The position numbers and the translations under genes were made by a program. Below, piece after piece: positions 42,115-55,551 of a DNA stretch of 64,000 nucleotides (its first letter is position 1; every line of letters begins with the position of its first letter). This DNA is from Martelella sp. HB161492. Its GTDB lineage: Bacteria; Pseudomonadota; Alphaproteobacteria; Rhizobiales; Rhizobiaceae. The notes below the pieces were generated by a model. It was not told where the DNA came from. It did no database searches and was given only the letters and a program-made list of their open reading frames with translations. The stretch spans positions 434,001 through 498,000 of the forward strand of contig NZ_JAATVV010000001.1 of assembly GCF_013184775.1 (NCBI RefSeq), given 5' to 3'.

Positions 42115-42277
42115 CGTGCCGCCCTGCCCCTTGGCGCTTACCCGCGCGAACCGCCCCCCACGATCACAGCACACGAACTGAAAGCGCGCATCGAACGTCG
42201 CGCTGAACCTCGCCGTCAGGCCTTGCGCAGCGGAAACGAAGCAAGGCCCGGCGATCGGCGGCCCAGCACGCAGTACG

Positions 42278-42311
42278 TTACTTATCGTTACCATTTATTA
42301 CTTATCGTTAC
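42278..42311 (+). repeat. Two 14-bp direct repeats in the AT-rich promoter region
   Basis: TTACTTATCGTTAC at 42278-42291 and again at 42298-42311, exact copies starting 20 bp apart. They lie upstream of the 12-bp inverted repeat, in the position of an activator site. Seen directly; role inferred. Confidence 0.6.
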
Positions 42312-42335
42312 TTCGTATTTTTAGAAAGATTCAAT

Positions 42336-42362
42336 TATATACATTGACAATCAATGTATATA
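42336..42362. promoter_or_regulatory. Perfect 12-bp inverted repeat with 3-nt spacer, probable operator
   Basis: TATATACATTGA, CAA, TCAATGTATATA: all 12 arm positions pair. A consensus-like -35 TTGACA (42344-42349) lies at the centre of the palindrome; no clear -10 is found at normal spacing. A dimeric regulator bound here would control transcription of the small-protein gene at 42447. This is one of the strongest palindromes in the window. Confidence 0.7.
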
Positions 42363-42446
42363 TAAACATGTAAGTTACGACAAACTGGATCCGGATCATC
42401 CCGATCTTGCAATAGTCCGTCTGGTGAAACCATGGAGATAGCGATT

Positions 42447-42782
42447 ATGGCCGAAGAGAAAAAACATTCTGGCGAAGCAGAAATGGCGCAGCTTGATCAA
42501 AAGGATCTGGAGTCCGCTTCCGGCGCCGGTTTCTTTGGTGATGTAGAAGCAGGCCTGGAAGGCGCGTGGGAAGGGGCTGCGGACAGTGTCGTGGGCTACT
42601 CCGAGGTCTTGTACCATAGCGTGAAAGAGTTTGGCATCGGCGTCGCGGCAGCCGCCGACTATGTCGCCGGGGACAAGTCGGGCGCGGCAAACAAGGTCGC
42701 AGACATCAAGAATGATTTTAACAACAACCTGATGAATGACTGGCTTCCCTATCCCGTTCCGGGGTCTAGCGAATCCAGCTGA
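42447..42782 (+). CDS. Small secreted-peptide candidate with double-glycine-type leader (microcin/bacteriocin-like)
   Basis: 111 residues, no family recognised. Residues 16-27, LDQKDLESASGA, match the double-glycine leader consensus at every key position counted from the cut after Ala27: Leu -12, Asp -11, Asp -8, Leu -7, Ala -4, Gly -2, Ala -1. The predicted mature part (from Gly28, about 84 residues) is rich in Gly, Ala and acidic residues, has no Cys, and starts GFFGDVEAGLEGAWEGAADS. I chose the ATG at 42447 because GGAGATA lies 7 nt before it; an ATG at 42432 would add five residues. The gene is solitary: no immunity gene and no peptidase-containing ABC exporter is visible nearby. It could instead be a cell-surface or toxin-like peptide using the same export route. 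Confidence 0.7.
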   Translation: MAEEKKHSGEAEMAQLDQKDLESASGAGFFGDVEAGLEGAWEGAADSVVGYSEVLYHSVKEFGIGVAAAADYVAGDKSGAANKVADIKNDFNNNLMNDWLPYPVPGSSESS

Positions 42783-42823: not shown

Positions 42824-42870
42824 AGGCGGGAAACATCGGGATATCATAGCCCGAGCAGCGTTTCCCGCCT
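42824..42870. terminator. Extended hairpin between the small-protein gene and the convergent MFS gene
   Basis: AGGCGGGAAAC (42824-42834) pairs perfectly with GTTTCCCGCCT (42860-42870), with an inner CGGG/CCCG stem (42837-42840 and 42850-42853). It lies 42 nt after the small-protein stop and 8 nt after the convergent MFS stop (minus strand), so it may serve both transcripts. No U-tract, so factor-independent termination is not assured. Confidence 0.5.
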
Positions 42871-55483: not shown

Positions 55484-55520
55484 TCGCCACGACCTGCCGG
55501 ATCACCATTGATAGAATGAA

Positions 55521-55551
55521 GAAAAGGGGCTTTGCGGCCCCTTTTCTTTTT
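55521..55551 (+). terminator. Rho-independent terminator of msrA
   Basis: GAAAAGGGGC pairs with GCCCCTTTTC (10 bp, 6-nt loop TTTGCG), followed by TTTTT. It starts 38 nt after the msrA stop. The A-rich upstream arm also makes it usable in the reverse direction. Confidence 0.85.

What the first reader, a model, noticed from the sequence alone, without database searches (positions are those of the whole stretch)
42278..42782. Orphan double-glycine-leader peptide behind a perfect palindrome in an AT-rich pocket
The 111-residue protein has LDQKDLESASGA|G, which fits the double-glycine leader consensus at all key positions, at residue 27, the usual leader length. Class II microcins and bacteriocins use this leader, yet the mature part has no Cys and I recognise no family, immunity gene or exporter beside it. 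Its promoter has exact 14-bp direct repeats and a perfect 12-bp inverted repeat around a TTGACA, in DNA much poorer in GC than the rest. This is the best candidate here for an undescribed secreted peptide system.
Basis: partly seen in the sequence, partly recalled or inferred. Interest (0 to 1): 0.8.

Follow-up and report, generated by a model that had tools for sequence, protein, structure and literature searches.

The report
Unlinked member of secreted-peptide regulon
A small gene sitting alone among metabolic genes of a Martelella bacterium most likely makes a peptide that is cut and exported by a dedicated transporter encoded elsewhere in the genome, and the two appear to be switched on together by the same DNA control boxes; what the peptide does outside the cell is not known.

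Summary
In detail: a 111-residue ORF (42447-42782, +) with a 27-residue LDQKDLESASGA|G leader, exact 14-bp repeats and a perfect 12-bp palindrome in 24% GC DNA. It is not an orphan. Its genome (Martelella) has one peptidase-C39 match, in a complete NHLM-type export operon on contig C44. That operon starts with two precursors sharing the window peptide's leader; a leader profile built without the window ORF finds only it among 1169 window segments. The 14-bp repeats belong to a period-10 array, GTTAC-N5-GTTAC-N5-ATTAC-N5-GTTAC. The three-box form occurs exactly twice in 5.28 Mb, here and before the C44 operon, and three times in 394 family genomes, each time before this peptide family. An OmpR-type response regulator encoded beside the C44 operon is present in exactly the 5 of 13 genus genomes with strong family matches. 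Best reading: an unlinked third substrate of a two-component-controlled peptide-export regulon. Export and co-regulation are inferred from sequence, with good support; antibacterial, biofilm or signalling function is open. The palindrome is unique in the genome and unexplained. New variant of a known kind.

The parts
42277..42311 (+).
42336..42362 (.). Perfect inverted repeat, 12-nt arms, 3-nt spacer, overlapping TTGACA; unique in the genome at up to 3 mismatches; role unknown (possible operator of a second regulator)
42434..42439 (+). Shine-Dalgarno-like GGAGAT before the start codon; a GGAG precedes 6 of 7 relatives' starts shown
42447..42782 (+). Precursor ORF, 111 aa, double-glycine-leader secreted peptide
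42447..42527 (+). Leader, 27 residues ending SASGA; predicted C39 cleavage after Ala27 (GA type)
   Evidence: GA cleavage precedent in PMC4997328
42528..42779 (+). Predicted mature peptide, 84 residues, net charge -9, no Cys, helical in a low-confidence model
42824..42870 (.). 11-bp inverted repeat (25-nt spacer) between the peptide gene and the convergent MFS gene; possibly a transcription end, but not scored as a terminator

Best explanation
The gene encodes an unlinked third substrate of the genome's single NHLM-type peptide exporter. (1) The response regulator encoded beside the exporter operon on contig C44, fed by the adjacent 7TMR-DISM histidine kinase, binds the tandem GTTAC boxes at 42277-42311 and before the C44 operon and switches both on together (inferred from shared sequence and co-occurrence). 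(2) The precursor is recognised through its LDxxDLxxAxG(G/A) leader by the C39 domain of the C44 ABC protein, cut after Ala27 and exported through the C39-ABC/ABC2/HlyD complex (inferred from leader homology and from there being only one C39 match). (3) Outside the cell the roughly 84-residue acidic, probably helical peptide acts with its siblings in a contact or competition role of the class II microcin kind (least certain step; no activity data).
For: Single C39 match in a genome scored 100% complete, C44:359292-359675, in an operon whose HlyD, C39-ABC and ABC2 proteins score 259.2, 925.4 and 801.4 bits against cut-offs 156.2, 853.3 and 709.4. Two precursors precede it. Leader profile without the window sequence finds the window ORF. 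Three-box motif exact at only two places in the genome and at three places in 394 family genomes, each before this family (reversed control 1 hit, in G034, none in G000). RR orthologue (64-82% identity) in the same 5 of 13 genus genomes that have strong precursor matches. Box variants before the operons of G383 and G398, which also carry all three NHLM proteins above cut-off. A second genus genome, G276, also has a family-like precursor on a different contig from its exporter, so unlinked precursors recur. Microcin PDI is a precedent for direct control of a GG-leader microcin by OmpR (PMC5311971 abstract and one section).
Against: The window peptide is the most divergent of the 18 strong family members: GA where 17 of 17 others have GG; leader 27 residues against 31-34; mature part only weakly like the others (10 of 1999 scored shuffles reach its score). 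No immunity candidate adjacent. No activity, export or binding data. The boxes are not exclusive when relaxed: G394 (three places) and G081 (one), which lack the RR, also match; G395 has only two boxes. The strict pattern was chosen after seeing three of the promoters. G276 has family-like precursors (E 8.6e-6 and 0.0099) and an NHLM exporter without the RR, and no box array was matched in the stretches of it that I scanned.
Confidence: 0.62

Rival explanations
1. Exported by the same system and co-regulated, but the peptides are matrix or biofilm proteins, as EbfG1-4 exported with the help of PteB in Synechococcus elongatus, not antibacterials.
For: EbfG proteins are small GG/GA-leader proteins without known domains, needed for biofilm; EbfG4 is cut after GA (PMC4997328 passages). 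All 18 mature peptides here are acidic (-5 to -10) and no immunity gene is adjacent to the window gene; several tandem paralogues per operon, up to 7.
Against: No direct evidence; 11 of 17 siblings have a hydrophobic, Gly/Ala-rich stretch (19-residue mean >=1.6) that suits membrane insertion.
Confidence: 0.18
2. The peptide is (also) a pheromone sensed by the 7TMR-DISM histidine kinase next to the C44 operon, giving autoinduction, like Gram-positive bacteriocin three-component systems.
For: A 7TMR-DISM kinase and the regulator adjoin the precursors and exporter in G000, G161 and G395; the regulator co-occurs with the family even where unlinked (G383).
Against: 7TMR-DISM sensors are not the kinase type of known peptide pheromone systems (recalled); mature peptides of 41-98 residues are long for pheromones; sensing not testable here.
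Confidence: 0.1
3. A decaying stray copy: a precursor gene moved away from its operon, transcribed or not, and no longer processed.
For: GA in place of GG, shortened leader, weak mature similarity; no counterpart at this place seen in the relatives looked at: in G081, G394 and G161 similarity to the window ends near the end of eutC, and in G081 and G394 other genes follow.
Against: ORF and Shine-Dalgarno are intact and its box array is the longest of the six promoters compared (four boxes); GA is a used cleavage site in EbfG4 and class II microcins.
Confidence: 0.07
4. Chance ORF or unrelated cytosolic protein with a leader-like stretch.
For: No Pfam or NCBIfam family above cut-off; a 146-aa antisense ORF overlaps it.
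Against: Independent leader profile hit and shared rare promoter motif; the antisense ORF matches no Pfam family at E<=1e-5.
Confidence: 0.03

Closest known systems
NHLM export cassette with NHLP / Nif11-leader precursors (TIGR03794, TIGR03796, TIGR03797; Haft et al. 2010, PMC2887384, passages read)
   Same: The three export proteins all score above the curated cut-offs; the leader ends in the same kind of L-rich pattern before G(G/A).
   Different: The precursors show no nitrile-hydratase-like or Nif11-like leader domain, having only a 27-34 residue leader; one precursor is unlinked; a two-component system stands beside the operon.
Class II microcins (Enterobacterales; PMC9746304, passages read)
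   Same: Precursor length 111 (verified range 75-120), GG/GA leader, C39-ABC exporter and HlyD-type fusion protein in the genome.
   Different: Second ABC protein (ABC2), no adjacent immunity gene, strongly acidic core, no match to a microcin family in Pfam or NCBIfam.
EbfG1-4 / PteB of Synechococcus elongatus (PMC4997328, passages read)
   Same: Small GG/GA-leader proteins released through a C39 protein, several per system, no other known domain.
   Different: Homology not tested; other phylum; function there is biofilm.
Microcin PDI (PMC5311971, abstract and one results section read)
   Same: GG/GA-leader precursor under an OmpR-type regulator with several possible sites in an AT-rich promoter.
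   Different: Its regulator is the general EnvZ/OmpR pair; here the proposed regulator is encoded beside the exporter. Microcin PDI has functional cysteines, the window peptide none.
Cyanobacterial bacteriocin clusters (PMC3140520, passages read)
   Same: C39-ABC plus peptidase-less ABC plus HlyD (their group V) with mostly negatively charged NHLP/N11P precursors.
   Different: Other phylum; no two-component regulon in the passages seen.

Membership tests
NHLM export system (exporter side) | HlyD-type (TIGR03794), C39-ABC (TIGR03796) and ABC2 (TIGR03797) proteins together | tested here: met
   259.2/156.2, 925.4/853.3 and 801.4/709.4 bits/cut-off, adjacent on C44 (L033:7951-14277); not in the window
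NHLM export system (exporter side) | C39 catalytic residues present | tested here: inconclusive
   Pfam C39 match over positions 3-131 of 133; Cys (ECGAACLAM), His (FNHFIVL) and Asp (NDPAQG) seen by eye in the start of the protein printed; no alignment or activity test
NHLP / Nif11 precursor family (TIGR03793, TIGR03798) | Long NHLP- or Nif11-like leader domain | tested here: not met
   no such line for the window protein at E<=10 nor for 8 of 8 family members scanned at E<=1 (10 of the 18 were not scanned); the library does detect Nif11 leaders in 3 of 3 precursors of G193, two above and one 0.1 bit below the cut-off
Double-glycine-leader peptides | Short leader with conserved hydrophobic positions and a GG/GA cleavage site | tested here: met
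Class II microcin | Precursor 75-120 aa with GG or GA signal (definition from PMC9746304) | tested here: met
   111 aa, SGA
Class II microcin | C39-ABC and membrane fusion protein in the genome | tested here: met
Class II microcin | Immunity gene (30-250 aa) among the nearest three genes on either side | tested here: not met
   main neighbours are EutC 261 aa, EutB 458, GMC oxidoreductase 579, MFS 440, FAA hydrolase 355, next ORF 315 aa; overlapping short ORFs other than the antisense one were not examined
Class II microcin | TolC-type outer-membrane channel | not tested
   no search made
Class II microcin | Inhibits related bacteria | not testable with these tools
   needs culture work
Peptide-pheromone three-component system | Pheromone-type (HPK10-like) receptor kinase | tested here: not met
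   the linked kinase is 7TMR-DISMED2 + 7TMR-DISM + HisKA + HATPase (same in G161 and G395); that pheromone kinases are HPK10-like is recalled
EbfG-like biofilm proteins | Needed for biofilm | not testable with these tools
   analogy only
OmpR-family regulon | Winged-helix response regulator and tandem direct repeats of about 10-11 bp period | tested here: inconclusive
   Response_reg and Trans_reg_C domains and period-10 boxes are present; binding not shown

The most novel reading that the evidence does not exclude
A peptide regulon of the genus Martelella in which a dedicated two-component system (7TMR-DISM kinase plus OmpR-type regulator) senses an outside cue, perhaps the peptides themselves, and co-induces an NHLM exporter together with scattered short-leader precursors: an alphaproteobacterial counterpart of Gram-positive regulated bacteriocin regulons, with a promoter code (GTTAC boxes, period 10) by which further unlinked precursors can be found.
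Probability: 0.2. Interest if true: 0.72.

Novelty: new variant of a known kind. Interest (0 to 1): 0.5.

Why it matters
Precursor genes far from their exporter are easily missed by cluster-based mining. Here a promoter motif plus a short leader profile tied one to its exporter across contigs. It also suggests NHLM exporters being used with plain short-leader peptides in Alphaproteobacteria, under a dedicated two-component system, which gives a testable handle (boxes, regulator, exporter, peptides) on what such acidic secreted peptides do.

Tried and rejected
Led nowhere: Pfam and NCBIfam searches of the window protein (the only Pfam line, PF00509 at E 7e-4, is far below its cut-off, 18.6 against 31.8 bits, and is read as chance). 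Homologues of the window protein in genome contigs, plasmids, phages and viral contigs (58): none at the limits used. Search with the window protein alone in 297 family genomes: 139 genomes have lines at E <= 1, the best besides itself E 0.0047; the C44 and G161 relatives surfaced only at E 0.14 and 0.6; many of the rest lie in long open frames, and of these I looked only at the G042 and, the G108 loci. Palindrome elsewhere in the genome: none at up to 3 mismatches. Structure prediction from the single sequence: mean pLDDT 57.9, four helices, too poor for a fold search, none made. L035 (G042) and L055 (G108) were dropped: no NHLM exporter was seen by eye among their larger ORFs.

Rejected: 'orphan peptide' (exporter and siblings found); 'palindrome as the shared operator' (not seen in the five relatives' promoters printed); 'Nif11-type precursor'.

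Limits of the counts: G383 and G395 precursors 3 are identical and precursors 2 differ at one residue, so 17 relatives are 16 distinct sequences. The two weak G276 precursors are not among the 17. The strict box pattern was read off three promoters (window, C44, G161), so those three are not independent tests of it; its absence elsewhere is. The relaxed form was made after seeing G383; G398 was the first promoter it found unseen and G395 is a miss (two boxes by eye). One search was given 10 of the 13 genus genomes (G354, G396 and G397 left out). One search allowed 2 mismatches and at that level its reversed control also had 2 matches; the exact-match control for G000 is (none). One search drew 394 genomes that did not include G394-G398. 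Leader alignments A2 and A4 contain the window sequence; only and leave it out. The mature part was tested against shuffles only. Weak lines of other family members to bacteriocin leader models (lactococcin G-alpha family E 0.029, lichenicidin A2 family 0.083, CTB family 0.26; Bacteriocin_IIc 0.0089 and ComC 0.046, both below cut-off, for a G276 precursor) agree with a GG leader but are no assignment.

Full report
What is there. The ORF at 42447-42782 (+) encodes 111 residues beginning MAEEKKHSGEAEMAQLDQKDLESASGA|GFFGDV. It lies between eutBC (EutB 724 bits, EutC 311 bits) and a convergent MFS gene, among ordinary metabolic genes. Upstream are the exact 14-bp repeats at 42278 and 42298 and a perfect 12-bp inverted repeat at 42336-42362, in DNA of 24% GC (42277-42380) against 60.5% for the window. 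No sigma-70-like promoter was scored around the TTGACA.

The exporter exists, elsewhere. The window is C1:434001-498000 of a 5.28-Mb, 52-contig genome. A search with Pfam C39 gives one match, on contig C44. Around it (L033) lie an OmpR-type response regulator (-), a divergent histidine kinase with 7TMR-DISM domains, two small ORFs with GG leaders, then HlyD, C39-ABC and a second ABC protein that exceed the curated cut-offs of TIGR03794, TIGR03796 and TIGR03797. This is the three-gene cassette described for NHLP and Nif11 precursors by Haft et al. (PMC2887384, passages). A close operon (HlyD 91% identical) is in Martelella alba BGMRC 2036; its contig NZ_VHLG01000025.1 has the length of G161:C14, 27,557 bp, so G161 is taken to be M. 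alba and, as G161 is of the same genus as the window genome, the window genome to be a Martelella.

The window peptide is a member of the same precursor family. The window protein alone finds the second C44 precursor only weakly (34% over residues 8-81, E 0.14). The leaders align. An own-genome search with a leader alignment that includes the window sequence returns three loci only: two on C44 and the window. As an independent test, a profile from the first 50 residues of 17 relatives of five genomes, without the window sequence, hits the window ORF and nothing else among 1169 window segments, E 3.8e-5 at a database size of 250,000; 0 of 1932 scored leader shuffles do as well. The mature part is a weaker match: 10 of 1999 scored shuffles reach its score. 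In the genus (13 genomes) 6 have matches at E <= 0.05: G000 3, G161 2, G383 3, G395 3, G398 7 and G276 2, those of G276 weak (E 8.6e-6 and 0.0099). In a sample of 394 family genomes, matches better than 1e-7 were only in G000, G161 and G383, all of this genus; five further genomes matched between 0.001 and 0.01. G383 and G398 carry all three NHLM proteins above cut-off; in G395 and G161 the C39-ABC was scored and is above cut-off.

Unlinked precursors recur. G276 has an ABC2 above cut-off on contig C1, with C39-ABC-like and HlyD-like ORFs next to it (by eye), and a precursor-like ORF about 2.5 kb away beyond another gene (L057:6860-7267). Its second precursor-like ORF, of 118 aa with the same MKKMF start and a GGKSF junction, is on contig C22 (L087:5928-6284, -), with no exporter-like ORF seen by eye in the 13 kb around it. 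G276 lacks the regulator and no box array matched in the stretches scanned.

Shared promoter code. The 14-bp repeats are the visible part of four boxes with period 10: GTTAC-TTATC-GTTAC-CATTT-ATTAC-TTATC-GTTAC (42277-42311). The three-box pattern GTTACN5GTTACN5ATTAC occurs without mismatch only twice in the genome, here and starting 249 bp before the first C44 precursor; the reversed control has no exact match in this genome, but 2 matches at up to 2 mismatches, a level at which the pattern itself has 4. In 394 family genomes the exact pattern occurs three times in all, the third before the M. alba operon; the reversed control occurs once, in G034. Variants stand before the operons of G383 (GTTAC, GTTAC, GTAAC) and G398 (GTTAC, ATTAC, GTAAC), and two boxes before that of G395. 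With the relaxed pattern RTWACN5RTWACN5RTWAC in 10 genus genomes, every match in the five RR-bearing genomes is at these promoters (none in G395), but G394 (three places) and G081 (one), which lack the RR, also match. The RR orthologue is in exactly G000, G161 (82%), G383 (65%), G395 (64%) and G398 (65%, plus a partial 66% match), 5 of 13, and unlinked in G383; the other match in G000 is 34%. In G161 and G395 the neighbouring kinase and regulator have the same Pfam domains. That this RR binds the boxes is inference from its OmpR-type domain, the tandem-repeat geometry (recalled for PhoB/OmpR) and the co-occurrence; the 13 genomes are related, so co-occurrence is not 13 independent events.

Mechanism. 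Shown by sequence: leader, family membership, single C39 match, shared rare boxes, linked RR and kinase. Inferred: RR control of both promoters, recognition and GA cleavage by the C44 C39 domain, and export. GA is a used site: a peptide of EbfG4 of Synechococcus elongatus consistent with cleavage after GA was found in medium (PMC4997328, passages), and class II microcin signals end in GG or GA (PMC9746304, passages). Direct control of a GG microcin by OmpR has precedent in microcin PDI (PMC5311971, abstract and one section). Guess: outside function. All 18 mature peptides are acidic (-5 to -10); 11 of 17 relatives have a hydrophobic Gly/Ala-rich stretch, the window peptide and 6 relatives do not (window maximum 19-residue mean 0.69). 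No immunity candidate is adjacent. I put the microcin-like reading first, ahead of biofilm/matrix and pheromone readings.

Not NHLP or Nif11 precursors proper. NCBIfam finds no such leader in the window protein or in 8 of 8 family members scanned, while it finds Nif11 in 3 of 3 tested precursors of another family genome, G193, that lie next to an ABC2 above cut-off. So the exporter is a member of the NHLM kind and the precursors are a short-leader variant.

The palindrome remains unexplained: unique in the genome at up to 3 mismatches and not seen in the five relatives' promoters printed. It may bind a second, local regulator.

Print. Paper searches listed no title or abstract start describing such a system in Martelella; only open-licence papers are held, lists were capped, and only the five papers cited were opened, in passages.

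Noticed in passing
L033:7632-7847 (+) and L034:5544-5732 (-): Small ORFs (71 and 62 aa) sharing FLDNVWV between the precursors and HlyD in G000 and G161; could be an accessory or immunity protein.
   Followed up: partly
L085:12635-15371 (-) (G398): Seven tandem short-leader precursors in one operon, mature lengths 41-98 residues.
   Followed up: partly
L056:1298-6930 (G193): Another family genome carries an NHLM ABC2 followed by about six Nif11-type-looking precursors, three of them tested by NCBIfam.
   Followed up: partly
L087:5928-6284 (-) and L057:6860-7267 (+) (G276): Two related precursor-like ORFs on different contigs in a genus genome without the response regulator; one near the NHLM genes, one not.
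   Followed up: partly
window 55519-55548: The only other perfect inverted repeat with arms of 11 nt or more in the window (12-nt arms, loop 6), terminator-like.
   Followed up: no
window 42522-42731 (residues 26-95): Sub-threshold Pfam line PF00509 (E 7e-4, 18.6 of 31.8 bits) for most of the mature peptide; probably chance similarity of a Gly-rich amphipathic stretch.
   Followed up: no
G394 C1:3026065, 3502855, 3681277: Near-identical GTAAC/GTTAC period-10 elements at three places, matching on both strands: looks like a dispersed repeat unrelated to the peptide promoters.
   Followed up: no
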